From contig CP053031.1 of assembly GCA_021496505.1 (NCBI GenBank), forward strand, positions 2,596,001-2,660,000: a stretch of 64,000 nucleotides of DNA. Reading direction: 5' to 3'. The translations under genes and the position numbers were made by a program. Below the pieces are notes generated by a model. It made no database searches, was not told the DNA's origin, and saw only the letters and a list, made by a program, of their open reading frames with translations. The DNA is from Thermoleophilia bacterium SCSIO 60948. GTDB taxonomy: Bacteria; Actinomycetota; Thermoleophilia; Solirubrobacterales; 70-9. This document shows positions 1 to 16,572 of the stretch, piece by piece; the first letter of the stretch is position 1; each line of letters opens with the position of its first letter.

Positions 1-511
1 GGACGACGCGATCGGCGCTCGTGCGGTGCTCCCCGATCGTCAGCTCGACGCGACCGTAGGGGTCGGAGCGATCGAGGTCGATCGCGCCGACCCGCCCGAC
101 CACGTGCTCGAGCCGCGCGCCGGGCCCGGCGCGGACCACCGACTCGGCCAGCAGGTCGGTCAGGTACTGCCCGAAGAGCCGCCGCGGCGCGAAGTCGGTG
201 GGCCCGATGGCGGCGCCGCGCGAGTTCGCCCAGCGCACGAAGTGGCCGGGATCGCGGGGCAGCGCGCCCATGTCGGCCGCGGGGACGTTCAGCCGGTGGC
301 GATCGTCGCCGGTCGAGTAGGCGAGGCCCGGACCGAGCACGCCTCGCGGCTCGACGACGCTGACCAGCAGCCGTCCGGCGCGGTGTCGGCGCAACAGCTG
401 GGCGGCGACGAGCGTTCCGCTCGCGCCCCCGCCGACGATCACGACGTGGCGTTCGTCCGCGTCCCTCTCGGGTGCGCCGCCGTTCGAGCTCGTGTTGCTC
501 TGCCCCGTCAT
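1..511 (-). CDS. FAD/NAD(P)-binding protein, partial (C-terminus beyond window)
   Basis: About 170 N-terminal codons are visible. After a short polar leader comes a Rossmann dinucleotide fold with GGGASG (about residues 29-34), then GPGLAYST and HRLNVPAADM, a pattern typical of the PF13454 (NAD_binding_9) FAD/NAD(P)-binding group. The substrate is unknown. The ATG start overlaps the stop of the preceding Mce gene as ATGA, so it is the last visible gene of the Mce operon and is probably translationally coupled to it. A flavoprotein could modify the molecule carried by the Mce system, but that is inference. The other half of the protein lies outside the window, so a more exact family cannot be given. 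Confidence 0.75.
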   Translation of the reverse strand, partial: MTGQSNTSSNGGAPERDADERHVVIVGGGASGTLVAAQLLRRHRAGRLLVSVVEPRGVLGPGLAYSTGDDRHRLNVPAADMGALPRDPGHFVRWANSRGAAIGPTDFAPRRLFGQYLTDLLAESVVRAGPGARLEHVVGRVGAIDLDRSDPYGRVELTIGEHRTSADRVV

Positions 512-1845
512 CGGTCCTCCTCGTTCGGGTCCGCCTCGGATCCATAGGGGTCGAACGGCTCGAGGCGGGGGTAGCCGGAGTATGGCTGCGGCGACTCGGC
601 ATCGCGCGGACCCGTGTAGGCGTTCGTGTCGTAGCGCCCCCCCGGCGCGCCCGTCGCCGTGTTCGGATCGAAGCCGACGAAGAAGCGGGCGAAGTAGCCC
701 TTGTCGTCACGGTGCGAGCCGAGGTCGCCCGTGTTCGAGAACCAGGCCGCGAACGCGTGCCGGCGGTCCGACAGGTAGCGGCCGATCGGCTGCCCGTTTC
801 GCATCGCATCGGCGAGCGGGTCGCCCGCGCCGCCGGCGAGCCCCAGGGTCCCGGCCGCCGCGGCGAGGAACGGGACGCCGTCGCGCTCGAGAGCCGGCGC
901 CGCGGCGAGGACGCGCTCGGCGTCGGCGCTCACCGCCGGCAACTCGGCAAGTGCGGCACGCAGGTCAGGCGCGGCGGCCGTCAGGTCGGCGGCGAGCGGC
1001 CGCGCCTCGATGAGCAGCGGGCGGACCTCGGCGAGCGTCGCGCGAGCGCTCACGAGCAGCGGCTGCAGCTCACGCAGGCCGGCATCGAGGTCGGTGGCTC
1101 GCGAAGCGGCCGCGCTGAGCGCGCGCTCGCCGTCGGCGACGATCGCGGTGATGTCATCACGGCGTTCGGCGAGCTCGCCGACCACGCCACGAGCATCCGT
1201 CACTGCGGAGGCGATCACGTCCTCCTGGCCGGCGAGCGCGAGTTCGAGCCGGCGCAACTCTGCCGTCGCGCGGTCGAGCTCGGCGAGCGTGGCGCTGGCT
1301 CCCGCCGATGCATCGCCGCCGCCGATCCCGCGGCTGAGCTCGGCCAGGGTCGCGTTCAGGTCGGCGCGGGCCGGGGCGTCCAACACGTCGAGCGCCTGGT
1401 CGACCTCGAGCGCCTCGGCGCGAACGGCTGCGGGAGGGATCTCGCCGCCCGAGCTGATCTCACCGCCGGCGCCGGCGCCGGCGTCCCGGCGGCCGTTCGG
1501 ATCGAGCTCCACGTACGGCTCGCCGAACAACGTCTTCTGCGCGACCGAGATAGTCGTCGCGCCGGGCAGCGGGGCGTACTCGTCGGCGAGCTCGAGGCGG
1601 AGCCGCGCACCGTCGCCGGTCCGCTCGACGCTGTCGACGTCGCCGACGACGACGCCCCGCACGATGACCTGCGACCCGGGAGCGAGACCGAGAGTGTCGT
1701 CGAGCGTCACGGTCACGCTGTAGGGCTCGGAGAACCGGATGCTGGGGCCGCCGAAGCGATCCATGAAGAAGACGAACAGCGCCGCGCCGGCGAGCATGAA
1801 GATCAGCAGGGCCGCCGCGCCGAGGCGTGGAATCCGGAGGTTCAC
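508..1845 (-). CDS. Mce/MlaD family protein, sixth of operon
   Basis: Predicted envelope subunit of an Mce lipid/sterol importer, 445 residues. There is one N-terminal transmembrane segment (about residues 8-28), then an MlaD/Mce beta-barrel domain (about 37-115), a long alpha-helical region rich in Ala, Leu and Glu that would build the periplasmic tube, and a Pro/Asp-rich tail. No lipobox is seen, so it is not an MceE-type lipoprotein. The start is GTG, overlapping the upstream stop as GTGA. It is the last of six consecutive paralogues, matching the usual MceA-F count. The substrate cannot be read from sequence. Confidence 0.9.
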   Translation of the reverse strand: MNLRIPRLGAAALLIFMLAGAALFVFFMDRFGGPSIRFSEPYSVTVTLDDTLGLAPGSQVIVRGVVVGDVDSVERTGDGARLRLELADEYAPLPGATTISVAQKTLFGEPYVELDPNGRRDAGAGAGGEISSGGEIPPAAVRAEALEVDQALDVLDAPARADLNATLAELSRGIGGGDASAGASATLAELDRATAELRRLELALAGQEDVIASAVTDARGVVGELAERRDDITAIVADGERALSAAASRATDLDAGLRELQPLLVSARATLAEVRPLLIEARPLAADLTAAAPDLRAALAELPAVSADAERVLAAAPALERDGVPFLAAAAGTLGLAGGAGDPLADAMRNGQPIGRYLSDRRHAFAAWFSNTGDLGSHRDDKGYFARFFVGFDPNTATGAPGGRYDTNAYTGPRDAESPQPYSGYPRLEPFDPYGSEADPNEEDR

Positions 1846-3233
1846 GGCCGGTCTCCGAGCGGTTCGACCGCCGACCCCGGGAGGCTGGGCACGAGGTAGC
1901 GCGCGAGGCAGGCGGTGTCGTTCTGCTCGAGACAGACACGGGTCAGGGCCCGCGCCGCGTCGGCACGGGCCGCCTCGGCACTCGCATCCGAGCCGTCGTC
2001 GGGGAAGCCGAGGTTCTCCGGGTCGACGGGCTCGAAGAACCCGAGCCCGCGGAGGATCGGGCCGTTGGCGTCGTTGGTCGAGAAGACGCCGCTGAAGCGG
2101 TCGCCGAGGACGCCGATGCCCTCCTTGTTGCGGTCGATCGCCTCGACGACCGAGCCGGCGTCGGCGATCGACTCTCGCGACTCTTCGGCCACGGGACCGA
2201 TCCGGTCGAGAACGCGCCGTGCGGCGTCGATCCCCGCGCCGCCGCGCTCGGCGAGGTCGTCGACGTCGGCGATCAGCCCCCGGCCCTCGGGCACGAACTC
2301 GCGCACCGCGGTCAGCGTGCCCGGCAACCGTGCCGCGAGCGGTCGCAGGTCGGCGAGCGCCGGCGCCAGCGGCTCGGACAGGCTCTCGACCTCGCCGAGC
2401 GCTCCGCGGGCCGCGTCCATCGTCGGCGGGAGCTCGGCGAGGGTCGAGGCGATCGCCTCGTCGTTCACGGCCGTCACGGCGAGGGTCCGGTCGGCGAACT
2501 CGATCGCGCCGGTCAGCGCGCGGTCGTGGCTGCCGAGCTCGCCGGCGAGGGCGTCGACCTCATCGACGAACCGTGCCAGCAGCGCGCGGCGGCGATCGAG
2601 ACGGGCGGCGAGGAGATCGGCGGAGTCGGTCAGCTCGGCGAGCTCGGCGAGCGAATCCCGAAGCTCGCCGGCGCGACCGTCGAGCCCGACCCGCAGCTCG
2701 CCCAGCAGCACCCCGACCTGCGCCCGGGTATCGGCGTCGAGAATCGACATCAGGCGATCGGAGCCGACCGTCGTCGAGGTTCGTGAGGCCGGGATCTCAT
2801 CGCCGTCGTCGAGCCCGCCGCCGCCCGAGCCCGGGTCGAGATCGACCGTCAGGTCCTGGAGCGCGGAGCGCGGGACGACCCGCGCGCGGGCGTCGGGCCC
2901 GAGCGTCCGCGCGGCCTCGGCATCGATTCGCAGCGTCGCCATCGCCCTGCCCGCCTCGACCTCGACATCGGTCACGGCGCCCGCCTCGACCCCGGCGACC
3001 GTCACCGGCGCGTCGGCGTCCCCCGCGAGTCCGGCGGCGTCCGGGAACTCGGCGCGCAGCTCGATCCGATCCGGCCCGAAGAACGGTGGGTCGACCCCCT
3101 CACGGGCGAGCATCCAGACGACGAATCCGAGCGCGAGCAGCGCCTGGAGCGCGATCGCCCGCCGGCCGAACCGCGGCTGCGGCCCGCGCGGGCGCAGCAG
3201 GCGCCGGGCCCTCGAGACGAACGGACCGCTCAC
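1842..3233 (-). CDS. Mce/MlaD family protein, fifth of operon
   Basis: Predicted Mce transporter subunit of 463 residues. A basic N-terminus precedes one membrane anchor (around ALQALLALGFVVWML), followed by an MlaD domain (UniProt-style beta barrel, about residues 45-125) and a long helical region ending in a section with two Cys (VCLEQNDTACLARYL) near the C-terminus. I chose GTG at 3233 because it overlaps the preceding stop as GTGA, the pattern of the rest of the operon; the frame stays open upstream but there it overlaps the neighbour's coding region. The substrate is unknown. Confidence 0.88.
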   Translation of the reverse strand: MSGPFVSRARRLLRPRGPQPRFGRRAIALQALLALGFVVWMLAREGVDPPFFGPDRIELRAEFPDAAGLAGDADAPVTVAGVEAGAVTDVEVEAGRAMATLRIDAEAARTLGPDARARVVPRSALQDLTVDLDPGSGGGGLDDGDEIPASRTSTTVGSDRLMSILDADTRAQVGVLLGELRVGLDGRAGELRDSLAELAELTDSADLLAARLDRRRALLARFVDEVDALAGELGSHDRALTGAIEFADRTLAVTAVNDEAIASTLAELPPTMDAARGALGEVESLSEPLAPALADLRPLAARLPGTLTAVREFVPEGRGLIADVDDLAERGGAGIDAARRVLDRIGPVAEESRESIADAGSVVEAIDRNKEGIGVLGDRFSGVFSTNDANGPILRGLGFFEPVDPENLGFPDDGSDASAEAARADAARALTRVCLEQNDTACLARYLVPSLPGSAVEPLGDRP

Positions 3234-4564
3234 AGCTTGCACCCCCCGGCCTCGGCGAGTCGCCCGGCGAGCTCCGGGTTCGCGCGCTCGAGCAGGTCGC
3301 ACGGCGGGACCGGATAGCCGACCCCGCTCAGGAACCGCAGGCCGAAGCGCATGAAGTGGCCAGATTCGGGCTGGAGCGGAGTCGCCTGCTCGGAGGTCGT
3401 GAACGGCTTCGACGCGCCGCCGCCGCCGCCGAACAGATTCAGGAACGAGACGTAGGCGGGAAGGCCGAGCTCGTCGGTCGGGCGGCGCAGGGTGGGAAGC
3501 AACGAATCGTCGAGGGTCGCGAGAGTCGGGTCGGTGACGTCGAGCGCTGAGTCGAGCGGCGCGGTCGCCGCCGCGCCGCGATCGAGCAGCTCGCGGGCGT
3601 CGGCGATCAGCGGTCGCGCGCGCTCCAGCGCTGGACCGGCCTCGGCGACGAGTGGCTGGGCTTCGGCGAGCGTCGGCTCGAGCAGCGCGGCGCCGGGCCG
3701 CAGATCGGCGGCGAGCGGGTCGAGCTCGGCGACGATTCGGTCCGCCGCCCGCGACCCGGCCACCGTCTCGCGCATCGTCGGCGGCAGCTCGGCGAGGACC
3801 GCGTCGAGTCTCGCGCCGTCGTCGACCCCGACCGCGGCGAGCGTCCGTTCGGCCGAGCCGAGCGTCGTCCCGAGCTCCTCGCGGCGGTCCGCGATCGCTC
3901 CGACGGTTCGGTCGAGCCCGGCGATCGAACCGGCCAGCTCCTCCCCCTCCGAGCCCCCCGCCGCGGCCGCGACCCGCGTCGCTCGCTCGGTCAGATCGGG
4001 GGCATCGCCCAGCATCCGGTTGATCGAGCCGGCGCCCGGCTCGTCGAGGACGTCGGCGAGACCGTCGACGTCCTCGCGCAGGTCGGCGCGGGCGTCGGCG
4101 TCCACGGCTCGGAGCCCGACGTCGATCGGGACGTAGGTGCGGGTGCGCTCGACCGCGATCGGCTCGTCCTCGTCGAGGACCGCCGCCGATGGGCTCCCGG
4201 GGTCGAGATCGATGAACGAGCTGCCCTCGAAGGCGAGGTGCGGCCGCAGCTCGGCCGAGGCGTCGTCGTGGACCTGACCCGCCTCGGCATCGATCCGCAT
4301 CTCGACCTCGAGACCCTCGGCACTCGGCCGCGTCCCGACGATCTCGCCTACGGGCGCTCCGGCGATACGGACATCGGCGCCGACCACCCCGATCCCTGCA
4401 CCGTCGGCGAACACCGCGCGCACGGTGCGATCGGACGAGAACGGAGCCGGCCGCAGGAACGCGATCGCGACGAGACCGACGAAGCTCGCGAGCACGACGG
4501 CGCCGAGCAGCGAACGGCGCCGTGGGTCATAGCCGCCGCGCCTGTCGGTGCTCAGGGCAGGCAT
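3230..4564 (-). CDS. Mce/MlaD family protein, fourth of operon
   Basis: Predicted Mce importer subunit of about 444 residues: one N-terminal transmembrane helix (around LLGAVVLASFVGLVAIAFL), an MlaD domain starting at RAVFADGAGIGVVGADVRI, then a long helical domain and a Gly-rich LFGGGGGASK loop before a C-terminus with two Cys (PPCDLLERA, GGCKL). The start at ATG 4564 begins MPALSTDRRG and leaves a 13 nt overlap with the upstream gene; the in-frame ATG 20 codons further upstream would add a basic stretch within the neighbour's coding region and is less likely. Confidence 0.88.
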   Translation of the reverse strand: MPALSTDRRGGYDPRRRSLLGAVVLASFVGLVAIAFLRPAPFSSDRTVRAVFADGAGIGVVGADVRIAGAPVGEIVGTRPSAEGLEVEMRIDAEAGQVHDDASAELRPHLAFEGSSFIDLDPGSPSAAVLDEDEPIAVERTRTYVPIDVGLRAVDADARADLREDVDGLADVLDEPGAGSINRMLGDAPDLTERATRVAAAAGGSEGEELAGSIAGLDRTVGAIADRREELGTTLGSAERTLAAVGVDDGARLDAVLAELPPTMRETVAGSRAADRIVAELDPLAADLRPGAALLEPTLAEAQPLVAEAGPALERARPLIADARELLDRGAAATAPLDSALDVTDPTLATLDDSLLPTLRRPTDELGLPAYVSFLNLFGGGGGASKPFTTSEQATPLQPESGHFMRFGLRFLSGVGYPVPPCDLLERANPELAGRLAEAGGCKL

Positions 4565-5802
4565 GGCTCGCGATCGTCTCCGGCCGCACCCGGCTCGGGG
4601 TAGGGGTTGCGACCCGGCGCGCACGTGAAGACGGGCGTGAAGCGCACGGCGCGATGACCGGACGCCTGCCCTTCGTCGTAGGAGAAGTCCCCCCAGGTGG
4701 TGAAGCCGGTCGGTCCGGCGAGGATGTCCTCCGGGTATCGACCGGCGTAGGCGGCCAGCGGCGACCCGGCGTCGACGAGCGGCCCGAGCGTGCGGGCCGC
4801 GGGGTCGAGCGCCTGGGTCGCCGCCGGCGCGACGTCGAGCAGCGGATCCGACGCACGGGCCAGTCGCGCGATCCGCTCGACGTCATCGTCTCGGGCGAGC
4901 AGGCCGTCGAGTGCCGGCAGCGCGTCCTCGAGGTCGCCCGCGGCCGGGGTCAGCGCGACGCTCGTCGCGCGAAGATCGCGAAGCAGCGGGACTGCGACGG
5001 GCGTCGTCGCCTCGAGCTCGTCGAAGACCGCCGGCGCGGCGTCGATCGACGCGCCGATGTCCTCGCGGCGCCCACTCAGGACCCCGAGCAGATCGGAGCC
5101 GGAGCGAATCGAGGCCCGGACCGCGTCCTCGGGCTCGGCGATCGCCTCCGAGACCGCCGTCGAATCGCCGACGAGGCCTTCGAGCTCGCCGTCACCGGGC
5201 CGAAGCGCTCGGAGCAGCGGCGTGCCGTCTCGCAACAGCTCCGGGCTCCGGGCGAGCGTTCGGTTGACCGCGCCTCCCCGCCCGGCCACCGCGCCCCCGA
5301 GTCCGGTCGTGACCCGGCGGACGTCGCCGCGGGCGGCATCGTCGAAGGAGGCGATGACATCGGTCAGCTGCGTTCCGGACTCCGCGGGGGTGGCGAGCGT
5401 GTAGTCGTCGGGCGCCGCTTCGCCGTCGCCCGGCCGGAGCTCGACGTAGACGGCGCCCGACAGGCCGCGCGTGTGGACCTCGGCGCTCGCCTCCCGCGTC
5501 GCCTCGACCGAGTCGAGCTTCATCTCGATCCTTCGCCGGCCGGAATCGTCGAGCTCGACGTCACTGACCTGACCGACACGCTGCCCCGCCACCCGGACCT
5601 CGTCTCCGGGCCTGACGATCGGCGCGTCGCCGGCGAGGACGGCACCGACCCGCTGTGAGCCGGAGAACGGGACCCCGTCGAGTGCGACGACCGACAGACC
5701 CGCGAGCGCGAGCATCGCCGCCACGACCAGCCAGCCCAGAGGCTTCGAGCGCGCGTCGCCGGAGCTCGCGCGGTCGGTCGCGTTGCCGGGGCGCTCGTTC
5801 AC
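4552..5802 (-). CDS. Mce/MlaD family protein, third of operon
   Basis: Predicted Mce importer subunit of 416 residues. A polar N-terminus leads into a membrane anchor (around LGWLVVAAMLALAGLSVVAL), an MlaD domain with the typical GDEVRVAGQRVGQVSDVEL segment, and a long helical region. The start codon is GTG, one base after the stop of the upstream gene, so the two are almost certainly on the same transcript. The C-terminus ends in a short Cys-containing tail. Which MceA-F position it corresponds to cannot be decided without phylogeny. Confidence 0.88.
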   Translation of the reverse strand: MNERPGNATDRASSGDARSKPLGWLVVAAMLALAGLSVVALDGVPFSGSQRVGAVLAGDAPIVRPGDEVRVAGQRVGQVSDVELDDSGRRRIEMKLDSVEATREASAEVHTRGLSGAVYVELRPGDGEAAPDDYTLATPAESGTQLTDVIASFDDAARGDVRRVTTGLGGAVAGRGGAVNRTLARSPELLRDGTPLLRALRPGDGELEGLVGDSTAVSEAIAEPEDAVRASIRSGSDLLGVLSGRREDIGASIDAAPAVFDELEATTPVAVPLLRDLRATSVALTPAAGDLEDALPALDGLLARDDDVERIARLARASDPLLDVAPAATQALDPAARTLGPLVDAGSPLAAYAGRYPEDILAGPTGFTTWGDFSYDEGQASGHRAVRFTPVFTCAPGRNPYPEPGAAGDDREPCLP

Positions 5803-5803
5803 G

Positions 5804-7327
5804 TCACGGCCCCAGCAGGAGGTCGAGGACGCGCTCGTCGTCTCGGGCCGCGCCGGGACTCAGGCCGAGCGCGCCGCCGAGGCGCTCGCGCAGGTCCGGG
5901 TCGCGCCGCAGCCGGTCGCGGAGCCGATCGGGGAGGTCGCGGAGCCGATCAGGAAGATCCTCGAGCCGGTCCGGCAGGTCCTCGAGGCGATCGGGCAGGT
6001 CGGGCGGAACGGGCGGATCGGGGAGACCGGGATCGCCGGGCAGCCCCGGCATTCCGGGCAGCCCGCCGTCGTCCGGCGGTGCCGTCTCGCCGGCCGACCC
6101 GTCGCCTGACGCTGCGCCGCCGCGGCCACCGGCGAGGAAGTCGGCGAGGCACCCGGGCTCGATCGGGACCCCGAACGACTGGCACGTGAGCACCGCGGCG
6201 CCGCGCCAGTAGTGGCGCCGCGGGTCCGTGCCGGGGTCGAACGGCTGGTTGCCGGGCTCGGCCGCCTGGTCCGGGAAGTTGACGAAGAAGCCCTCCGAGA
6301 TCGCGGGTGCCGCCGGCTCGAGAGCGCCAAGGAAAGAGCGGTATTCGGGGGCTGTCGCGAGCGTTCGATCGAGCCCGACCGCGGCGGCGTCGAGCGTCGG
6401 CGCGGCCTGCTCGAGCAGATCCGTCGTCCTCGAGATCGCGGGGCGCAGATCGCCGGCGGCGGCCTCGACCGACCCGAGGAACGGCTCGACCCGAGCCGCG
6501 GTCTCGTCGAGCCGCGGCGCGATCCGGGCGACCCGCTCGGCGAGCGGTCCGGCGGCGGCGCTCGTCGCCTCGATCTCGCCGCTCAGGCTCGCGAGTCGCT
6601 CGAGCGTCGCCGGGGTGCCGGCGAGCGTCGCCGCGAGGGCGTCCTCGCGCGCGGCCGACGTCTCGAGGACCGCGGCGAGCGAGTCGACGCCGCTCCCGAG
6701 ACGCTCGCGCTCGGCCGCGGCCTGCGACGTGACCCGCTGCGCGCCGGCGACGAAGCGAGCCAGGCTCGTGTTCTGGGTCTCGAGCTCGCGCAGCACCCCG
6801 TCGGCCGCCTCGAGCGCCGGCGAGAGCTCGATCGCGGCGGCGTTGAGATCGGCGCCACGGCGGTCCATCGCGACGCCGGACTCGACCAGGACCGCCTCGA
6901 CACCGGCGCGCTCGGGCTCGTCGAAGGTGCGAAGGAGGTCGTCGAGCCTCGGCTCGTCGAGCGTGCGCGACGCCGGGATCGGGCCGTCGAGCGGCTCGCC
7001 CTCGCCGGGGTCGAGCGCGACGTAGGTGTCGCCGATCAGGTCGACCGGCCGGATCGCCGCGGTCGCGTCGGCGGCGGCGGCCGGAGCTCCGGGTTCGAGC
7101 TCCATCCGGACGAGTGCCCGGCCCTCTTCCGTCAGCTCGATCGAGCTCACCGTCCCCGCGGGGGCGCCGTCTATCCGGACGTCGTTGCCGTCGATCAGAC
7201 CGCGAGCGCTCGTGAACTCGGCCTCGACGATGCGCTCGTCGCCACCGGCGCCGAGAGCGCTCGCCGCGAGCACGACGAGCACGGCCGCGACCACGACTCC
7301 CGCCGCGGCGGGTCCACGACCGTTCAC
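5804..7327 (-). CDS. Mce/MlaD family protein with Pro-rich heptad-repeat tail, second of operon
   Basis: Predicted Mce importer subunit of 507 residues: one membrane anchor (around AAGVVVAAVLVVLAASAL), an MlaD domain (GLIDGNDVRIDGAPAGTV), a helical tube region, then a low-complexity Gly/Pro segment and four near-perfect seven-residue units LPDRLED/LPDRLRD followed by an Arg-rich helix. The repeats are also visible as 21 bp DNA repeats. I chose GTG at 7327 because it overlaps the upstream stop as GTGA; the longer frame upstream overlaps the neighbour. The tail is unlike those of the other five Mce proteins here and may be a contact or wall-spanning element. Confidence 0.88.
   Translation of the reverse strand: MNGRGPAAAGVVVAAVLVVLAASALGAGGDERIVEAEFTSARGLIDGNDVRIDGAPAGTVSSIELTEEGRALVRMELEPGAPAAAADATAAIRPVDLIGDTYVALDPGEGEPLDGPIPASRTLDEPRLDDLLRTFDEPERAGVEAVLVESGVAMDRRGADLNAAAIELSPALEAADGVLRELETQNTSLARFVAGAQRVTSQAAAERERLGSGVDSLAAVLETSAAREDALAATLAGTPATLERLASLSGEIEATSAAAGPLAERVARIAPRLDETAARVEPFLGSVEAAAGDLRPAISRTTDLLEQAAPTLDAAAVGLDRTLATAPEYRSFLGALEPAAPAISEGFFVNFPDQAAEPGNQPFDPGTDPRRHYWRGAAVLTCQSFGVPIEPGCLADFLAGGRGGAASGDGSAGETAPPDDGGLPGMPGLPGDPGLPDPPVPPDLPDRLEDLPDRLEDLPDRLRDLPDRLRDRLRRDPDLRERLGGALGLSPGAARDDERVLDLLLGP
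5915..5998 (-). repeat. Four tandem 21 bp units encoding LPDRLxD
   Basis: Four consecutive 21 bp units (5978-5998, 5957-5977, 5936-5956, 5915-5935 in transcript order) encode LPDRLED twice and LPDRLRD twice near the end of the second Mce protein. Codons differ between units while the residues are kept, which suggests selection on protein rather than recent duplication. Confidence 0.9.
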
Positions 7328-8619
7328 CGGCCGTCCTCCCCCTCGGAGAGAAAGCTGTCTCGGTAGTCGCGCCACGGGTCACCCTCGAGGACGCCCGGCG
7401 TGCGCAGGAAGGGCTCGGCGAGCGACCCGGCGCCGTTCTCGTCGCCCTCGATGCGGTTCTCCGGTGCCGGCGGCAACACGATGCCGACTCGAGCACCGTG
7501 TCCATTGGCGTCGTAGACCGACGTGAAGTCGGCCCAGTTGGCGAAGAAGGAGAAGAAGTCGGGTGTTCGGACGCGTGCCTCGTCGAGCACCGGGCCGGCC
7601 TCGGTCAGCGCCGAGTCGAGGCGGGTGAGCGTCGGCCGCAGCCGCTCTGCGAGCGACGTCAGCGAGCGCAGCCGCGGCGGCGCGGCGCTCGCGAGACGGG
7701 CCGCGTCGTCGAGCGCCGGCCGAGCCGTCACGAGCGTCGGGCGAAGCTCGCGCGCGAACTCGCCGATCCGCGCGACACCCGGGCCGGCATCGGCGACGAG
7801 TCCGCGCAGGTCGCCCGATGCGGCGCGGGTGCGCTCGAGCGCGAGCCGCGGAGCATGCAGCGTTTCAGGCAGGAGCTCGGCCGCCGACTCGATCTCGGCG
7901 CTGCGCGCGGCCGCCGTGCGGAGCGCGACCGCGAGCCGCTCGGCGGTCCCGCCGAGTTCGTCGCGACGCTCCTCGAGCTCGGCGAGGAGCGACCCCCCGT
8001 CCGATACGAGTCCGCGCAGCGCCTCGCGATCGGCGTTGACCTGCGCGAGCAGGTCCGCCGTGCGGCCGAGCGCGCCGGAAGAGTGGCGGAGCGTCGCCTC
8101 GAGCTCGTCACCGCGACCGCGTAGCGATGCCTCGAGGCCATCGAGCAGCCGCCCGGCGTCGCGGCGGACCGGACCGCGAAGCGATGCGAGCACGTCGGTC
8201 GCCCGGACCGGCTCCGCGGTCTCCGTGTCGGCGAGCGTGACCTCCTCGCCCAGCGGCTCGCCGTCGCCGGGATACAGGATCACGTAACGGTTGAGCTGCC
8301 CGGAGGCCGAGCCGGCGCGAAGCTCGGCGCCCGCGCCCTCGCGCAACTCGACGTCCGGGTCGATCTCGAGCTCGACCTCGGGCAGGCCTCCCGCGCCGAG
8401 ACCGATCGAGGCGACCTCGCCGACCGGCGAGCCCCAAGCCTCGACCTCCGCACCTACGACGAGCCCGTCGACGCGCTCGAACTCGGCGACGACGTGCTGC
8501 CGGGAACCGGCGGCGCCGCCGAGTGCGAGCCAGGCGCCGAGAACGGCGACGGCGACGCAGGCCAGCGCGGTCACGCGGCGGCGGCGGAAGCTCGCGCGCT
8601 GGTCGGCGGGGGCGCTCAC
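7324..8619 (-). CDS. Mce/MlaD family protein, first of operon
   Basis: Predicted Mce importer subunit of 431 residues, directly downstream of the two permeases. A polar N-terminus (SAPADQRASF) is followed by one membrane anchor (around VTALACVAVAVLGAWLAL), an MlaD domain (GLVVGAEVEAWGSPVGEVASI) and a long helical region ending in an acidic tail (LSEGEDGR). The open frame extends about 600 nt further upstream, but that part is the out-of-frame shadow of the permease; the GTG at 8619 forms a GTGA overlap with the permease stop and gives a normal Mce N-terminus. Confidence 0.88.
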   Translation of the reverse strand: MSAPADQRASFRRRRVTALACVAVAVLGAWLALGGAAGSRQHVVAEFERVDGLVVGAEVEAWGSPVGEVASIGLGAGGLPEVELEIDPDVELREGAGAELRAGSASGQLNRYVILYPGDGEPLGEEVTLADTETAEPVRATDVLASLRGPVRRDAGRLLDGLEASLRGRGDELEATLRHSSGALGRTADLLAQVNADREALRGLVSDGGSLLAELEERRDELGGTAERLAVALRTAAARSAEIESAAELLPETLHAPRLALERTRAASGDLRGLVADAGPGVARIGEFARELRPTLVTARPALDDAARLASAAPPRLRSLTSLAERLRPTLTRLDSALTEAGPVLDEARVRTPDFFSFFANWADFTSVYDANGHGARVGIVLPPAPENRIEGDENGAGSLAEPFLRTPGVLEGDPWRDYRDSFLSEGEDGR

Positions 8620-9386
8620 GCGAGTGGGATCCTCGGGTTCGCCCCCCAGAAGACCAGCGTCCCGGCCATCGAGATGATCGTCACCGCGACGATGTTCACT
8701 GCCATCGATCGCGCCGTCGCGACGCCGACCTCGCTTGGACCCCCGCGCACCGTGTAGCCGTAGTAGAGCGCCACGACGATCACGACGAAGCTGATGACGA
8801 GGCCCTTGACCAGCGAGTAGACGAGGTCCTGCGGGTCCTGAAAGAGGCCGAAGAAGGCCGTCCACGTGCCCTCCGACACATCGCCGAAGCGCTTGGCCGA
8901 GACGAGGTAGGCGGCGAGGTAGGACGATGCGACCGCCAGCAGGTAGGTGAACGGGAGCACGATCGCAGCGCCGAGCAGGCGCGAGCCGACGAGGTGCGGG
9001 AGCGAGCGGATGCCCATGCCCTCGAGCGCGTCGATCTCGGCACTGACCCGCATCGCTCCGAGCTCGGCGACGATTCCGCAACCGACCTTGGCGGCGAGGA
9101 TGTAGCCGAAGACGAACGGGACGACCTCGCGCAGCGTGCACCAGGCCGAGAAGCCGGCGGCGATCGGCCGCGTGCCGAACGAGCGCGCGAGCGTGCTCGA
9201 CTCGAGTCCGCAACTGCCGCCGGCGAGGAACGCGATCACGAGGATCACTAGGACGCTGCCCGTGACGATGATCGCCGCCTGGCGCAGGCCCTCGGCGAGG
9301 AACCGCGGGACGTGCCGGAACTCGGCCAGCGCCGCCGCCGCGAACGCGGCGATCTCGCCGGCGAGCCTGAACGGGCCGGCGCTCAT
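8616..9386 (-). CDS. MlaE/YrbE-type ABC permease, second
   Basis: Integral membrane permease (256 residues) of an Mce-associated ABC importer. It has about five to six hydrophobic segments (for example around AAIIVTGSVLVILVIAFLAG) and the conserved permease segment ELGAMRVSAEIDALEGMGI, where YrbE proteins contact the ATPase. It would form the heteromeric pore with the first permease. The ATG at 9386 overlaps the upstream stop as ATGA. No Mce ATPase gene (MceG/MlaF type) lies in this window, so the energising subunit must be encoded elsewhere, as is common in actinobacteria. Confidence 0.93.
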   Translation of the reverse strand: MSAGPFRLAGEIAAFAAAALAEFRHVPRFLAEGLRQAAIIVTGSVLVILVIAFLAGGSCGLESSTLARSFGTRPIAAGFSAWCTLREVVPFVFGYILAAKVGCGIVAELGAMRVSAEIDALEGMGIRSLPHLVGSRLLGAAIVLPFTYLLAVASSYLAAYLVSAKRFGDVSEGTWTAFFGLFQDPQDLVYSLVKGLVISFVVIVVALYYGYTVRGGPSEVGVATARSMAVNIVAVTIISMAGTLVFWGANPRIPLA

Positions 9387-10297
9387 CGCAGGACCCCGAC
9401 CTCGGGGAACAGCGCCAGGAAGAGCTGCGTGTAGACGAGGTTGACGACGAAGATCGCCGCGAGCGACCCGACGACCGCCTCGTTGACCGCGCGACCGACC
9501 CCGGCCGGCCCGCCCTTCGCCGACAGGCCCTTGAAGCAGCAGATGACGCCGATCAGGACCCCGAAGACCGCCATCTTGAGGACCGCCGCGTAGAGGTCTA
9601 GGACGGTCGTGTTGGCGAAGAAGGACTCGAAGAACGCGCCGGGCGTGTCGCCGAGAACGACGACAGAGGCGATGAAGCCGCCGCCCACGCCGGCGACGAT
9701 CGCGAGCATGTTGAGGGCGACGAGCATCACGATCAGTGCCAGGATCCGGGGGACCACGAGGTAGGTCATCGGGTCGACGGCGAGCACGCGCAGCGCCTCG
9801 AGCTCCTCGCGCATCTTGCGCGTGCCGAGCTCGGCGGTGATCGTCGTGCCGACCATCCCGGCGACGACGGTGGCGGTGACGAACGTTCCGAACTCGCGGA
9901 CGATCGCGACGACCATGAACCCGCCCGAGCGATCGATCGCTCCGAGCGTCGCGAGGAAGTTGCCCGCCTGCAGGCCAGGGCCCGAGAAGCCCCAGGCCGC
10001 GATCGCGATCGCGATCGGCGCCGCGCAGACCTTGAGGATGAATACGCATTGGATCACGAACTGGCGCCGCCACAGGAACGGCGGACGCGCGGCGACCCGG
10101 GCGGCCGAACCGGCGAGCAGAGCCATCCCGCCGAGCTCACCGACCCAGTCGGAGATCCGCCTCCCGACCCCGTCGCGCCGCCTCGCCGCGCGCTCCCGGG
10201 CGCTCGGCCGCGGCGAGCGCTCGAGCCGCGGGCGGCGGGCCGGAGCTCCGCCGAGCCCGAGGCCCGCGGGGTCGGCCCCGCCCGCCCGCCCGCTCAA
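9383..10297 (-). CDS. MlaE/YrbE-type ABC permease, first
   Basis: Integral membrane permease of the Mce importer, with the signature ELGTRKMREELEALRVLAVDP and several transmembrane segments (for example around ILALIVMLVALNMLAIVAGV). I placed the start at TTG 10297, giving 304 residues, because it overlaps the upstream stop as TTGA, mirroring the GTGA/ATGA couplings seen through the operon. A later in-frame GTG (before GRRISDWV) would give about 260 residues, nearer the usual length, so the first 45 residues or so, rich in Arg and Ala, are uncertain. Confidence 0.88.
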   Translation of the reverse strand: MSGRAGGADPAGLGLGGAPARRPRLERSPRPSARERAARRRDGVGRRISDWVGELGGMALLAGSAARVAARPPFLWRRQFVIQCVFILKVCAAPIAIAIAAWGFSGPGLQAGNFLATLGAIDRSGGFMVVAIVREFGTFVTATVVAGMVGTTITAELGTRKMREELEALRVLAVDPMTYLVVPRILALIVMLVALNMLAIVAGVGGGFIASVVVLGDTPGAFFESFFANTTVLDLYAAVLKMAVFGVLIGVICCFKGLSAKGGPAGVGRAVNEAVVGSLAAIFVVNLVYTQLFLALFPEVGVLR

Positions 10298-13173
10298 CCG
10301 CTCGGCTCCGGCTCGCCGTTCTGGGCGAGGCTCGGGGCGGCGTCCTCCAGGGGCGGGCCGAGCGACTCGGCGCTGACCGTCGTCCAGGTGCCGTCGGTGA
10401 AGAACGAGCCGTTGTAGGTGTCGCCGCCGCGTGACGCCGGGATCAAGGTCGGCGGCAGGAACGTCCCCTTGAGGACCGAGAAGCGCTGCGAACCGGCGCC
10501 GGGCGCGTCGCTCCTCCACGGCGAGAGCAGCGCGTCGGCGAACGGCGCCGGACGGTCGAGGGCCGCCTCGATCTGCTCCGGCTCGACCCCGTCGTCGGTC
10601 GACTCGTCGAGCGCGACGCCGGCGAGATAGCCGCGCAGACCGTCGAGCGTCGGAGCCTCGCCGGGGAACAGCGCCGGGGTCGCCTCGGCGTAGCTCAGCG
10701 CGTCGCCGGCGCTCGGCGTCACCTCGACGGCGCCCTGGATCGCGCCGAGGCGACCGAGCGTGCCCGCGTCGGCGACGAAGCGCTCGGAGAAGATCCGTGA
10801 CGAGGCCAGGACCGGAGCCGCCTGCAGGTAGCGCTCCGTCCCGGCGGCGTCCGACAGGCTCTGCGCGATCCTGCCGGGGTCACCGTCGACGAGCAACGCG
10901 GCGCTCGCTGCCGGATCGAGAAGCTCGCGCGCCCGCTCCGGGTCCTCGATCGCGCCGGGGTCGACGCGCTCGACGCGCAGCGAGCCCTCGAGCCCGTCCT
11001 CGAGGCCCGCCAGTCGGCTTGCGGCCGTCGCGTCGCCGGGGTCGAGGGCGCGAACCCGGCGCGCCTCGGAGATCGGCGCGACCGACTCGGCGAGGTACTG
11101 GCCCTGCGCGTAACCCTCCGCATAGGGGTCACCGGCGAGCCGGAAGACGCGCGAGGAGTCGCTGGCGGCGACCGCCGGATCCGCGACGAGCGATGGCACG
11201 CCGGCCGCATCGGCGGCATCGACGGCGGCCGCTGAGGCCGCGCCGCAGGGCGCCGCCACCGCGACGACCTCGTTGTCGGCGATCGCGTCGTCCGCGAGCT
11301 CCGCGGCGCGGTCGGACGAGCCCGAGTCGTCGAGTGCCAGGACGGTGAGCTTTCTCCCGCCCTCGAGTCCACCGACGGCGTTGATCCGGCCGACCGCGAG
11401 CTGGAGACCGAGCACGTGCGAGCGACAGCGCTCGGCGTCGGCTCCCGACAGATCGGCGACCGACAGAACCGTCAGCGGTCCGGGTCCGGGCGCCTCGGGG
11501 ACGCCGACCGGCAGGCCGACGGGATTCGTCTTCTCATCACCCATCCGCAACCGCGCGAACCACGGTCCCTCGGCCGGGAGCTCGACATCGGTGCTCCAGC
11601 CTCCGGCCGGGTCGTGCTCGAGCTCGGCCGCGATCGGCTCGTCGGCGCAGCCACAGAACAGCCGCGCCTCGACGTGGCGCGGGCCATCCCCGCGCTTCGG
11701 GACGTCGCCGCCCGCGACGAGTAGGCGGTTCGAACCCTCGAGCGCCGGCGCGAGGGTGACCCTCAACGGCCCGTCGGGGCCGATCGTGGTCGCGAGGGCC
11801 GGCCCGGGCACGAGCGTCCCGTCCTCCGCCGGCAGCGGCTGACCGCGCCCGGGCACGAGGCTCGCGAGCAGGGCCGCGAGGCCCAGCACGGTCACGACGA
11901 CGCCGGCCTCCCAGCGGACGATCGGGCTGAAGCCGTCGCCGCGCCGCGCACGCCGCATCGCCAGAAGGCCGATCGCGATCGCCACGACGACGAGCGCCGA
12001 CTTGATCAGCACGACCTGTCCATACGCCGACCAGCGCAGGAAGTAGAGCTGATCGACCTCGCGCAGGGCCGCCAGCACGCCGGTCGCGACGAGCAGGACC
12101 ACGGAGACCGCGACGACCGGGGCGAAGCGCCGCAGCGCCTCCGCGAAGGGCACGCCGGGCCGGTTGCCGCGCCGCGAGACGACGGCGAGCGCGACGAGCG
12201 CGCCGAGCCAGGCCCCGGCGGCGAGAACGTGTACCACCTGAGCGGCGGCGGCGAGCGCGAGACCCTCGCCGAGACTCTGTATGTGGCCCGCGAGAGCGGT
12301 GCCGGCGAGGACGACCGCGCCCGAGAGCGCGACGAGCATGTCGCGCCGGTTCGCGCTGCGGCGAGCGAGCGCCGCGACCCCCCAGAGCGCGACTGCCAGG
12401 ACGAGCTGGGCGAGGGTGGCTCGCCCGGCCGGGGATTCGACGAGCGCACCGAGCTGGGCGCCCGACTCGATCCCCGCCATCGAGGAGGCGATCGTCTGCT
12501 CGAACAGGCCGGCGACCATGACGAGCCAGGCGAGGTTCGCGACACGCCGCCAGCGCCGTGCCGCCGCCTCGACGCCCGAGACCCCGCGACGACGCAGGAC
12601 CGCGAGCAGGAGCCAGCCACCGGCGAGCAGCGACGCCGCGACGAGCGAGGCCCAGCGAGCGATCACGGTGATCGTCGCCTCGGCGACGACCTGCTCGGCC
12701 TCGCGGCCGCCGCGAGCGCTCGTCGCGGCGACCTGCTCGGCCCCGTCCGGAGGGTCGCCGTTCGGCGCCGCGATCCCGAACGGGAGCGTCCCCCCGACCT
12801 GGTGACCGTCGGCGCCGAGAACGGTCCAGGTGAGCTCGTAGGTGCCCTCGGTCAGCGGCTCGGCGGGATCGATCGTGATCGTGCGCTCGTCGCCGGCGGC
12901 CTCGAGCGGGCCGGTCGGGACGGGCGCTCCGTCGAGCGTCTCGACCGTCACCTCGGAGCTGCCGAGCACGACGGGCTCGGTGAACGCGAGCTGGATCTCC
13001 TCGGCGTCGCGCGGGGAGATCGCGCCGGCGGCCGGCGAGGACTGCACGAGCGAGGGGTGGGCGGAGGCTCCGGCCGGCAGGACCAGTAGGGCCAGCAGGG
13101 CCGCGACGAGCGGTGCGAGCGCGGCGCCGAGCGAGAGTCGCCTCCGGCGGGCGGGGGTGGGGGAAGTCTTCAT
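10294..13173 (-). CDS. CopC-CopD-periplasmic binding protein fusion
   Basis: A 959-residue fusion. Residues 1-38 form a signal peptide ending ASA, exposing His39. A CopC domain (39 to about 135) keeps the copper ligands His39, Asp122 and His124 (ADGHQVGG). A CopD membrane domain (about 165-440) has roughly eight helices and the motifs HVLAAGAWLG and YGQVVLIKSAL. After a beta-rich linker comes a type I periplasmic-binding-protein fold (about 570-910; LQLAVGRINAVGG, LALDDSG), as in branched-chain amino-acid receptors. The stop overlaps the first Mce permease as TTGA. Copper binding is well supported; the role of the receptor domain is unknown. Confidence 0.85.
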   Translation of the reverse strand: MKTSPTPARRRRLSLGAALAPLVAALLALLVLPAGASAHPSLVQSSPAAGAISPRDAEEIQLAFTEPVVLGSSEVTVETLDGAPVPTGPLEAAGDERTITIDPAEPLTEGTYELTWTVLGADGHQVGGTLPFGIAAPNGDPPDGAEQVAATSARGGREAEQVVAEATITVIARWASLVAASLLAGGWLLLAVLRRRGVSGVEAAARRWRRVANLAWLVMVAGLFEQTIASSMAGIESGAQLGALVESPAGRATLAQLVLAVALWGVAALARRSANRRDMLVALSGAVVLAGTALAGHIQSLGEGLALAAAAQVVHVLAAGAWLGALVALAVVSRRGNRPGVPFAEALRRFAPVVAVSVVLLVATGVLAALREVDQLYFLRWSAYGQVVLIKSALVVVAIAIGLLAMRRARRGDGFSPIVRWEAGVVVTVLGLAALLASLVPGRGQPLPAEDGTLVPGPALATTIGPDGPLRVTLAPALEGSNRLLVAGGDVPKRGDGPRHVEARLFCGCADEPIAAELEHDPAGGWSTDVELPAEGPWFARLRMGDEKTNPVGLPVGVPEAPGPGPLTVLSVADLSGADAERCRSHVLGLQLAVGRINAVGGLEGGRKLTVLALDDSGSSDRAAELADDAIADNEVVAVAAPCGAASAAAVDAADAAGVPSLVADPAVAASDSSRVFRLAGDPYAEGYAQGQYLAESVAPISEARRVRALDPGDATAASRLAGLEDGLEGSLRVERVDPGAIEDPERARELLDPAASAALLVDGDPGRIAQSLSDAAGTERYLQAAPVLASSRIFSERFVADAGTLGRLGAIQGAVEVTPSAGDALSYAEATPALFPGEAPTLDGLRGYLAGVALDESTDDGVEPEQIEAALDRPAPFADALLSPWRSDAPGAGSQRFSVLKGTFLPPTLIPASRGGDTYNGSFFTDGTWTTVSAESLGPPLEDAAPSLAQNGEPEPSG

Positions 13174-13268: not shown

Positions 13269-15418
13269 TCAGTCCGCTGGGCAGATGCCCGGCGGGCAGA
13301 CCCAGACCATCGAGTGCGGCTTGTAGAAGCCGGCATCCGGTGATCCGGGCCAGTTGCGGCGATTGAAGTTGACCCCGATGGCTCCGGTCTTCTCGTCCCG
13401 GAACTCCTCGTCGTAGGTCATCTTGTGCGTCTCGGGATCGATGTCGACCGCGTACATGCGGTGGTCACCGTCAACACCCGTCCTCGCAACGAAATAGTTG
13501 GAGAACAGCAGACGCGTGGGCGAGCCTCCGTCCGTGAGGCTGTGGTTGTCCAGGGCGCCCCAGTGCGGGCCACCACTCGTCGGATCGTCGACCTCGAGGG
13601 TCGAGATCAGCTTCGGGCAGTCCGCCACGCGCTCACCGTCGGCGAGCGCCTGGAACGTCTCCATCCCGGTCAGGTCCTTCTTGCCGTCCCCATCGGTATC
13701 CGTGCCGCGGGACAGGTCGCACGCGACCTTGCCGTCCTTGGCGCTCTTGACGAGCTTGCGGATGTCGATGTTGTAGAGCAGCTTCGGCTGGCCCTGATCG
13801 AAATAGTTGTCGGCCAGCGGCACACGCCCCTGGACCGAGCGGAACATCTGCTTGTTGTCTCGCGAGACCTGGTGCCATGCGCCACCTGCGCAGCCGCCCG
13901 GCTCGTCGATGAACTTGTCCTCTCCGCCCAATGCGAACTGCGAGAGGCCGTCGTTCCAGACCTGGTTCCACTGCTTCGAGGAGTCGCCTTCGAGCTTCGT
14001 CACGTCAGGCGTGAAGAAGACGCCGCCACCGCACATCGAGCCGGCGAAGATCCCGTTGGACTTCAGCATCCCCGGGTATTCCTTCGGCTCGTACGGCCAC
14101 GTCTTGGCGTTCTCCATGATTCCGTACTGCTGGTGCGCCCGCTGGGCCGGCTCAAGCGGTCCATTGGGCATGTGCGCGGTCGACAGGAGCTCCGGATTCG
14201 CCGGGTCCTGCGTGTCCCAGACTCGGACCGTCGGGCGGAACGCGTACTTGTCCGCCGTCTTGACCGGGTCGAGGATGATCTCCCGCGGCTCCGCGTAATC
14301 GGACGTGACCATGCGCTTCACGTCCTGGCGGATCTGGATTCCGTGCGGGTTGGCGCAGGTGCCGAGCGGACGCGCCTCGCGCGCCGTGCAGGCCTCCGGA
14401 ACGCCGTTCTCGTTGCCGTTCAGAACCGCGCCGGGCGTACCCGCCGGGGTCTCCGACTCGACCACGAGCCCCTTCTCCTCGTCGGGCTTGAACGTCACGA
14501 CCGAGCCGGGGCTGCCGGCGAAGTTCGTGTTTGGTCCGCCCATGTAGGTGCCGATGAAACGGCCGTCCCCGACCGCGTCGTAGGCATCCGGAACCGACCC
14601 CTGCAGGGTCTCCTGTGGCGGGATGATGTTCTGGAGCTCCATGTTCGGGACGTCGGAGACGTCGAGAACGAACGTGGAGTCGTTGAACAGGCCACCGGCG
14701 ACGACCGGGTCGCCGTCCTGCCACTCGTACTGCATGTGGTGCGCCTCCGTCTCAGCACCCCACGGAAGCGGGAGCTGGACGAAGTTGACGACCTTCCCGT
14801 AGTCCGGGTTGTCCGAGCCGTCGATGTTGTACTTCCGCATGTCGAAGACCTGGAAGCCGTCGAGGCCGGGCAGGAACTGCGGGTTGAGCAGGTCTGCCAG
14901 ACCCTGCGGATTGATCGTCGCGTTCTGCAGGAACTGCGAGATCACGTCGGCGTGGACGTCACCGGCGTTCTGCTTCGCAGACCAGACGACCGTGTACTCC
15001 GGCTTGGCCAGCGGATCGGGACCCTCGGCGAGCTTGCGCTGCTTGCGCGCCTTCGCCAACAGGGCCTGCTTGCGCTCACCCCTCGCGTCTCGAGCCTTGC
15101 GCTCGAGCTCACGCGCCTTCTTGCCGGCGGCCTTGCCTTCGCCTCGGCCTCCTCCCAGTCCGCGACGGCCTCGTCGCGACGCGCCTCGGCACCCTCGATC
15201 AGGTTGTTCTTGACCGAGGTGGTCGTCGACGCACGGCTCAGGGTGTTGGCGAGCGATTCCGGATCGACCGGAAGGTCACCCGTATCCGACGGCGGATACT
15301 CGTCGTCGCTCTGCGCCACCGCCGCCGTCGCCGTACCGAGCGTGGCTATCGCCACCAGCACGACGAGCAGGTGGCGCTTGGCCCAGCGCGAGCGACGCTT
15401 CTCTTCGCTTCTTCGCAT
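13269..15418 (-). CDS. Secreted SBP56/methanethiol-oxidase-like protein, frameshifted
   Basis: The main frame (13269-15059) encodes a beta-propeller-like protein resembling selenium-binding protein SBP56/methanethiol oxidase: an early HHMQYEW, then FVLDVSDVP, RFIGTYMGG, NPHGIQI, VRVWDTQDP and a C-terminal YKPHSMVWVC. The start of the gene is in another frame: ATG 15418, preceded by GGAGG, gives a signal peptide (RHLLVVLVAIATLGTATAAVA) and a charged coiled coil. One base appears to be missing near 15131-15138; restoring it gives one protein of about 716 residues. Its promoter shares an operator with the YeeE/YedE operon, which fits sulfur metabolism. Whether the frameshift is real or a sequencing error is unknown, and family assignment is moderate. 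Confidence 0.6.
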
Positions 15419-15469
15419 TCTGCCTCCAGGGGATCCCATCCGAGCGGCGATCGCCGCCCTCGAGACGCG

Positions 15470-15499
15470 AGACTACAGCTTTTCTACCTTGTTGGTAGA
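15470..15499 (-). promoter_or_regulatory. Promoter with palindromic operator for the SBP56-like gene
   Basis: A dyad TCTACC-N5-GGTAGA (15483-15499) sits between a -35-like TCTACC and a -10-like TAGTCT (minus strand; 15470-15475), about 50 nt upstream of the start at 15418. The element overlaps the stop codon of the upstream YeeE-like gene. It aligns without gaps with the element at 16477-16508 (26 of 33 positions identical by eye). Confidence 0.55.
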
Positions 15500-15973
15500 G
15501 ATAGTCGGAAATACACTTTGCGCCGATGCGGAAGATCCGCTCCACGTCCTGCTTCGCGACGGTTCGCGACCCTGGCGCCGGAGACCGAGCTCAACGCCGA
15601 CGAGCAGCCCGGCGAGCGTGAACAGGCTCCACAGAACCCCCTGGGAGAGCTGGGCGGCGATCGGCGCCGGGCACGACGCGGTGATCGCCCAACCGACCCC
15701 GAAGAGAGCCGCTCCGCCGATGTGGCGCGGCTCGGGCCGCAGCCGCTGGGGGTCGACCACGCCGCCGGAGATCAGCGCGCGGAACCGGCGCCTGCGAAGA
15801 AAACGAACGCCGAGGATCGAGACGGCGATCGCCGAGAACATCATCTCGTAGAGATACGGATCGCGGAGCAGCAGCATGTCGCGGATCCGGTCGGGGTCGC
15901 TGAACTGACCCCACGAGATCAGGAACCCGAACGCCGCCCCGAGCAGGGCCGCGGCGAGCCGCGCCGGCGTCAA
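15473..15973 (-). CDS. YeeE/YedE-type sulfur transport protein, second half (DUF6691-like)
   Basis: A 166-residue membrane protein with four hydrophobic helices and a conserved Cys in ITASCPAPIAAQL (Cys101), as in the second half of YeeE/YedE thiosulfate or sulfur-compound transporters. Start TTG 15973 overlaps the stop of the first half as TTGA, so the two are coupled and probably form a heterodimer equal to one full-length YeeE. The last 25 or so residues are hydrophilic and are encoded over the next promoter region. The transported sulfur species is not determined by sequence. Confidence 0.82.
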   Translation of the reverse strand: MTPARLAAALLGAAFGFLISWGQFSDPDRIRDMLLLRDPYLYEMMFSAIAVSILGVRFLRRRRFRALISGGVVDPQRLRPEPRHIGGAALFGVGWAITASCPAPIAAQLSQGVLWSLFTLAGLLVGVELGLRRQGREPSRSRTWSGSSASAQSVFPTISTNKVEKL

Positions 15974-16437
15974 AGGACCGCCTCGATCAGAAAGCTGACC
16001 GCGACCGCCGTCGCCATGAATGTGCAGGTGGCGGCGAAACTGGCCGGTGAGCCGGCCGAGCACCCGCCGAGCCCGTTGCCGGACGTGCACCCACCCGCGA
16101 CCTTCGCGCCGAGTCCAATCAGGACCCCTCCCGCGAACAGCGCGCCCGCGACGACGAGGTCGCTCGAGAATGCATCGGTCAGCCACCCGAAGCCGCCGGC
16201 GCCGGCGCGGGGGAATCCCGTGGCGGCCGCGAAGACCAGGCTGCCCGCGAAGACGCCGAGCAGGAACCACGCCGGCAGCCCGAAGCTCCCGAGCCGGCCC
16301 GTCGCGCGCTCGACGATCTGCGAGAAGCCGCCGACGACTCCGATCCTGACGTTGACGAGCGCGAACAGCGCGACGACGACGAGGCCGATCAGCGGTCCGA
16401 GGACGTACCAGGCGGGTCGGGTGAGGAGAGCTTCCAT
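15970..16437 (-). CDS. YeeE/YedE-type sulfur transport protein, first half
   Basis: A 155-residue protein with about four transmembrane helices. The motif GGCTSGNGLGGCSAGS (Cys117 and Cys126) is the hallmark of the YeeE/YedE sulfur-transport family, where membrane cysteines relay thiosulfate or persulfide sulfur. It is the first gene of a two-gene operon and is followed by the second half with a TTGA overlap. No clear Shine-Dalgarno precedes ATG 16437. A palindromic operator lies about 50 nt upstream, so expression is probably repressed by an unlinked regulator. Confidence 0.87.
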   Translation of the reverse strand: MEALLTRPAWYVLGPLIGLVVVALFALVNVRIGVVGGFSQIVERATGRLGSFGLPAWFLLGVFAGSLVFAAATGFPRAGAGGFGWLTDAFSSDLVVAGALFAGGVLIGLGAKVAGGCTSGNGLGGCSAGSPASFAATCTFMATAVAVSFLIEAVL

Positions 16438-16476
16438 GTGGATCGTGGGCGCGGCCCCCCGGACGCGGTCGGGGCG

Positions 16477-16508
16477 ATCCTACAGTTTCTCGACCAAGTT
16501 GGTCGAGA
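16477..16508 (-). promoter_or_regulatory. Promoter with palindromic operator for the YeeE/YedE operon
   Basis: An 8-5-8 perfect dyad TCTCGACC-N5-GGTCGAGA (16488-16508) overlaps a plausible promoter on the minus strand (-35-like TCGACC, -10-like TAGGAT at 16477-16482), 40-70 nt upstream of the start at 16437. The position suits a repressor. The regulator family is not known; Rrf2- or ArsR-type proteins are possible. Confidence 0.6.
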
Positions 16509-16572
16509 TTGTGCCGGTGGGGTTGACGCAGCGCCACCGCCTGCGGCGTGGCCCACACACAGACCCCGGAAA

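What the first reader, a model, noticed from the sequence alone, without database searches (positions are those of the whole stretch)
15470..16508. Two sulfur-gene promoters share one palindromic operator
The region before the YeeE/YedE pair (16477-16508) and that before the SBP56-like gene (15470-15499) align without gaps, 26 of 33 positions by eye, including a CTACAG flank and a central dyad (GACC or TACC-N5-GGTC or GGTA). In both, the dyad lies between plausible -35 and -10 boxes, so one repressor would control both. This links an SBP56/methanethiol-oxidase-like secreted protein to sulfur transport. No regulator gene is nearby.
Basis: partly seen in the sequence, partly recalled or inferred. 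Interest (0 to 1): 0.75.

Follow-up and report, generated by a model that had tools for sequence, protein, structure and literature searches.

The report
Shared promoter palindrome, regulator unknown
Two neighbouring genes in an actinobacterium, a putative sulfur-compound permease pair and a secreted protein resembling a copper-dependent thiol oxidase, start behind the same 36-base promoter sequence with a palindrome found at no other promoter of the genome, so they probably share one local switch, but its regulator is unknown and relatives do not share it.

Summary
On the minus strand, 15505-15473 and 16512-16480 match at 26 of 33 positions; the best block is 28 of 36 (15502-15467 and 16509-16474). 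Both hold TCKACC-N5-GGTMGA followed by CTGTAG, with one compensatory base-pair change. In the whole 3.42 Mb genome the dyad occurs 15 times: 13 inside coding sequence, the other two being these promoters.

A shared local operator between -35-like and -10-like boxes is the best reading (about 0.5). But no Rrf2, ArsR or CsoR gene carries the motif, and no orthologue examined, of the permease or the SBP56-like gene, has it. The two genes are unlinked in the three other genomes that hold both. The copies flank the YeeE/YedE pair as direct repeats, so promoter duplication is the main rival.

The SBP56-like label holds at fold level (best PDB match is SBP56 2ECE; His-His aligned) but not by Pfam. 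This unnamed secreted family sits near CopC-CopD and Mce genes in related genera, suggesting copper and Mce transport as much as sulfur. The window's copy carries a frameshift.

The parts
16474..16509 (-). copy B of the shared promoter/operator block, ahead of the YeeE/YedE pair; dyad 16490-16506 (TCGACCAACTTGGTCGA), -35-like TCGACC 16501-16506, -10-like TAGGAT 16477-16482
   Evidence: function inferred
15467..15502 (-). copy A of the block, ahead of the SBP56-like gene; dyad 15483-15499 (TCTACCAACAAGGTAGA), -35-like TCTACC 15494-15499, -10-like TAGTCT 15470-15475; overlaps the last codons and stop (15473-15475) of the second permease gene
   Evidence: function inferred
15970..16437 (-). first permease half (YeeE/YedE, matches the C-terminal half of Sulf_transp, GGCTSGNGLGG motif), PmpA-like
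   Evidence: PF04143 positions 176-309, E 1.8e-5, 24.9 bits, just under the Pfam cut-off of 27
15473..15973 (-). second permease half (matches the N-terminal half of Sulf_transp / TsuA, DUF6691), PmpB-like; TTG start overlaps the stop of the first half
   Evidence: PF04143 E 1.1e-10, PF20398 E 5.1e-10; weak PDB matches to TsuA
13269..15418 (-). secreted SBP56-like beta-propeller gene (signal peptide by eye, linker, propeller with EAHHMQY); reading frame broken near 15130-15145
10294..13173 (-). CopC - CopD - periplasmic binding protein (Peripla_BP_6) fusion, recurring neighbour of the SBP56-like gene
508..10519 (-). YrbE-like permeases and Mce/MlaD genes following the fusion gene (coordinates approximate)
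   Evidence: YrbE assignment by eye

Best explanation
The two blocks are a promoter-operator module present twice, once ahead of the PmpAB-like permease pair and once ahead of the SBP56-like gene, 1007 bases apart on the same strand. A dimeric DNA-binding protein, most likely a repressor, would bind TCKACC-N5-GGTMGA. The half-sites are 11 bases apart centre to centre, one helical turn, so the protein would cover the -35 region and the spacer and keep RNA polymerase off both promoters until an inducer releases it. Because the genes are co-directional with a gap of about 55 bases, both promoters can feed the SBP56-like gene and perhaps the CopC-CopD/Mce genes behind it. Shown: the sequence, its genome-wide uniqueness among promoters, the compensatory change, the gene order. 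Inferred: promoter boxes, binding protein, repression, inducer (a reduced sulfur compound or copper are guesses). The arrangement appears to be recent and particular to this lineage.
For: Ungapped match 28/36 including spacer bases and the -10-like flank. One compensatory arm change, so the dyad is retained while the sequence drifts. The only promoter-located copies in 3.42 Mb. Same spacing of dyad to -10-like box in both. TAGGATC also lies just upstream of a start codon of a CsoR gene in this genome.
Against: No regulator gene examined carries the motif (four Rrf2, eighteen ArsR, two CsoR loci). The motif is absent upstream of all orthologues of either gene that were read. Only two sites, so no regulon. 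Copy A's dyad alone is not exceptional (6.7% of shuffles match it). No consensus sigma-70 promoter is called.
Confidence: 0.5

Rival explanations
1. Promoter duplication without a dedicated regulator: the permease pair was inserted or rearranged ahead of the SBP56-like gene and the promoter segment was copied, leaving two imperfect direct repeats flanking the pair. The resemblance then reflects origin and core-promoter constraint.
For: The repeats bound the permease pair, with the stop codon of the second permease gene inside copy A. Among genomes searched the pair is adjacent to the SBP56-like gene only in this one; the genes are unlinked in G059, G065 and G244. The similarity includes the presumed -10 region, not only the dyad.
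Against: The arm change T-A to G-C is compensatory and the dyad survived in both copies, which neutral drift would not favour; this rests on one base pair.
Confidence: 0.25
2. The dyad is a binding site for an activator of MerR type, sitting between -35 and -10 boxes with a slightly long spacer, perhaps sensing copper or a thiol.
For: The dyad overlaps the -35-like box and lies in the 18-base spacer. The SBP56-like gene is followed by CopC-CopD.
Against: A spacer of 18 is shorter than the usual 19-20 of MerR promoters (own knowledge). The MerR genes of this genome were not surveyed.
Confidence: 0.1
3. The block acts in RNA, as a leader hairpin.
For: Both copies fold into the hairpin; copy B is unusually stable (z -2.7, 3 of 200 shuffles).
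Against: Copy A is ordinary (z -1.4, 18 of 200). If the TAGGAT/TAGTCT boxes are right the dyad lies upstream of the transcript. No terminator and no Rfam family near its threshold.
Confidence: 0.07
4. Chance similarity of two unrelated promoters.
Against: The motif is unique among promoters in the whole genome and lies at the same place relative to the -10-like box in adjacent genes.
Confidence: 0.08

Closest known systems
SBP56 / methanethiol oxidase MtoX (PF05694, PDB 2ECE; PMC5739008)
   Same: beta-propeller fold, top structural match to 2ECE (Foldseek E 3.2e-12 against 1e-6 for the next); His-His motif aligns; signal peptide; copper-related gene next door (CopC-CopD here, SCO1/SenC in Hyphomicrobium)
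   Different: no Pfam SBP56 match; about 13-15% identity; longer; no SCO1 or MauG seen next to it; enzyme activity unknown
PmpAB, short YeeE/YedE permease pairs (PMC11582611)
   Same: two roughly 155-166 residue halves, each matching one half of the full-length family
   Different: order is C-half-like then N-half-like; substrate unknown; beside an SBP56-like gene only in this genome among those searched
Sulfane-sulfur ArsR repressors of YeeE-type transporters (SoxR, sHdrR; PMC12423496)
   Same: would also be a repressor controlling a YeeE-type transporter together with sulfur genes
   Different: none of the 18 ArsR loci here carries the motif or lies nearby
CsoR-type copper repressor operators (PMC3902906)
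   Same: TACC...GGTA-like pseudo-palindrome over a promoter (copy A)
   Different: G-tract missing; this genome's own CsoR-like site is ATACCCCCTTGGGGTA, with a different spacing

Membership tests
SBP56 / methanethiol oxidase (PF05694) | sequence match to the SBP56 profile | tested here: not met
   no Pfam hit for the window protein even at E 10, nor SBP56 for its orthologues; G000 has no PF05694 match
SBP56 / methanethiol oxidase (PF05694) | SBP56 beta-propeller fold | tested here: met
   Foldseek top hit 2ece E 3.2e-12; VIA Z 24.3, 369 residues, 3.4 A, though other propellers score as high; model mean pLDDT only 67
SBP56 / methanethiol oxidase (PF05694) | conserved histidine copper ligands | tested here: inconclusive
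   His-His pair aligned with SBP56 His-His in the profile comparison (prob 51, E 1.6e-4); H239 and H582 invariant in the family but not placed on the remaining two ligands
SBP56 / methanethiol oxidase (PF05694) | methanethiol oxidase activity | not testable with these tools
   needs enzyme assay
YeeE/YedE (Sulf_transp) permease, PmpAB type | each half matches one half of the family profile | tested here: met
   PF04143 176-309 (E 1.8e-5, just below the cut-off) and 2-102 (E 1.1e-10, above it)
Rrf2 operator | same motif ahead of an Rrf2 gene of the genome | tested here: not met
   four Rrf2 genes, none with the motif
ArsR operator (SqrR/BigR/SoxR type) | same motif ahead of an ArsR gene of the genome | tested here: not met
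   18 ArsR loci scanned; hits of 2-3 mismatches only, the sole intact dyad lying inside a coding sequence
CsoR operator | G-tract pseudo-palindrome | tested here: not met
   the sites have AACAA/AACTT cores; no matching intergenic site at the two CsoR genes
dedicated regulon operator | conservation in orthologous promoters | tested here: not met
   about 20 permease and 10 SBP56-like orthologue upstream regions lack it; the core ACC-N5-GGT is not enriched

The most novel reading that the evidence does not exclude
A lineage-specific regulator, sensing a reduced sulfur compound or copper, jointly controls import of a sulfur species and a secreted copper-dependent thiol oxidase of a new SBP56-like family that works with CopC-CopD and an Mce system; related genera keep the co-regulation with diverged operators, as hinted by one genome in which a 12-base word occurs only at these two promoters.
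Probability: 0.12. Interest if true: 0.65.

Novelty: new member of a known kind. Interest (0 to 1): 0.36.

Why it matters
If the operator is real it gives a two-gene handle for finding the regulator of a thiol or copper response in Solirubrobacterales-type actinobacteria, a group with little known regulation. The wider point is an unnamed family of secreted SBP56-like propellers found next to CopC-CopD and Mce genes, which makes a copper-dependent extracellular oxidase in this group a testable idea.

Tried and rejected
Regulator search by autoregulation: Rrf2, ArsR and CsoR genes of the genome do not carry the motif; TetR, MarR, MerR and other families were not surveyed gene by gene, but the genome-wide motif scan would have shown a close site ahead of them. 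Phylogenetic footprinting: no motif ahead of permease or SBP56-like orthologues. Core ACC-N5-GGT enrichment in those regions: not significant (P 0.20 and 0.08). Best shared words in three genomes holding both genes: not significant. RNA element: no Rfam match near threshold. Sequence search of the SBP56-like protein in Pfam, NCBIfam, PADLOC and PDB found nothing of use. One search with a malformed reference and one with a wrong frame gave nothing.

Full report
WHAT IS THERE. The window is positions 2596001-2660000 of a 3.42 Mb single-contig genome; the nearest named matches to one of its genes are Solirubrobacterales MAGs. On the minus strand lie, in order, two short permease genes (16437-15970 and 15973-15473), a gene for a secreted protein (15418-13269), a large fusion gene (13173-10294) and a run of YrbE-like and Mce/MlaD genes (10519-508).

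THE OBSERVATION. The best 33-base stretch matches at 26 of 33; the best block is 28 of 36 (ATCTCTACCAACAAGGTAGAAAAGCTGTAGTCTCGC at 15502-15467 against ATCTCGACCAACTTGGTCGAGAAACTGTAGGATCGC at 16509-16474). Both contain TCKACC-N5-GGTMGA with a compensatory T-A to G-C arm change. Copy B's dyad extends to a 10-base-pair arm and is matched by none of 300 shuffles; copy A's dyad alone is matched by 6.7%.

CHANCE AND UNIQUENESS. TCKACCAACWWGGTMGA has two exact matches in the genome, these. With up to three mismatches there are 89 strand hits. I read nearly all of them. Apart from the two sites, the few hits in sequence that is not clearly coding have damaged arms. The relaxed dyad TCNACC-N5-GGTNGA has 15 places, 13 in coding sequence. 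Two of 300 shuffles of the upstream regions reach the alignment score. Outside the dyad-defining positions 18 of 26 bases agree, binomial tail 1.6e-5, a figure flattered by choosing the block after the fact. Chance is unlikely but not excluded.

PROMOTER ANATOMY. The consensus scan finds no sigma-70 promoter. Still, TCKACC, 18 bases, then TAGGAT or TAGTCT is a plausible actinobacterial arrangement, and TAGGATC is seen close to a start codon in a CsoR gene of the same genome. The dyad would cover the -35 region and the spacer. Copy A runs into the last codons of the second permease gene, whose stop TAG is part of CTGTAG.

REGULATOR. The genome has four Rrf2, eighteen ArsR and two CsoR genes over their cut-offs; none has the motif upstream. 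A PadR gene lies 31 kb away in the window without the motif. If there is a regulator, it is elsewhere and is not autoregulated through a close copy of this site.

RELATIVES. The SBP56-like gene has matches in 8 of 399 genomes of the class besides G000 (seven of them full-length orthologues at 68-70% identity) and in three records of the other collection. The permease has matches in 26 others. No upstream region that I read has the motif. G059, G065 and G244 hold both genes, unlinked. Some orthologue promoters of the SBP56-like gene have other dyads (L040 and L041, each at 0.3% of shuffles), so a dyad-binding control of this gene with changing specificity is conceivable. In G065 the 12-mer CAAACCNGACCG occurs only at the permease and SBP56-like promoters. 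I found it after the fact, and a third of shuffles give as good a shared word, so it is a hint only.

THE PROTEINS. The permease halves match opposite halves of PF04143 (the first half just below the cut-off), the PmpAB pattern (PMC11582611). That paper reports pmpAB as not thiosulfate-responsive in Hyphomicrobium. The SBP56-like protein has no useful Pfam, NCBIfam, PADLOC or PDB sequence match, but its model (mean pLDDT 67, pTM 0.77) has the Sulfolobus SBP56 structure 2ECE as best Foldseek hit by more than five orders of magnitude; VIA-align gives Z 24.3 but several other propellers score the same. The profile comparison with true SBP56 from the same class is weak (prob 51, E 1.6e-4) yet aligns the His-His pair, which are copper ligands in methanethiol oxidase (PMC5739008). 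In L033, L135 and L136 the gene is followed by a CopC-CopD gene (with a binding-protein domain in L135 and L136), and Mce genes lie nearby in L134 and L135 (part of this by eye). In the more distant L034 it is followed by a TauE/SafE exporter. So copper is the more consistent partner and sulfur appears twice in different guises. The window's own copy is broken by a frameshift near 15130-15145, unlike its orthologues: an assembly error or a damaged gene.

MECHANISM. Most likely a dimeric repressor binds both copies and is released by an inducer; this is inference. The chief rival is that the permease pair arrived with a duplicated promoter, since the copies flank it as direct repeats. An RNA hairpin is less likely.

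VERDICT. A real, genome-unique promoter repeat with a dyad; a shared switch is plausible but has no regulator, no conservation and no expression data. Modest interest; the unnamed SBP56-like/CopCD/Mce neighbourhood may deserve more attention than the operator.

Noticed in passing
window 10294-15418; L033, L135, L136: An unnamed family of secreted SBP56-like propellers is followed by a CopC-CopD gene (with a Peripla_BP_6 domain in the window, L135 and L136), with Mce/YrbE genes nearby, across Solirubrobacterales-type genomes.
   Followed up: partly
window 15130-15145: Frameshift in the linker of the SBP56-like gene; orthologues are continuous.
   Followed up: partly
G065:C1:461131-461142 and 1768861-1768872 (L174, L175): CAAACCNGACCG occurs only twice in this 4.4 Mb genome, at the permease and SBP56-like promoters, 1.3 Mb apart.
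   Followed up: partly
L034 188-3137: A more distant SBP56-like gene is followed by a TauE/SafE sulfite-exporter-like gene.
   Followed up: partly
L163 (G000:C1:755990-756223): A CsoR gene has typical CsoR-like sites (ATACCCCCTTGGGGTA) upstream, divergent from what looks by eye like a heavy-metal-binding ATPase gene.
   Followed up: no
window 18554-19027 (+): Small protein with a basic GRP-rich stretch and a C-terminal winged helix, weakly Rrf2-like (E 2.7e-4, below cut-off).
   Followed up: no
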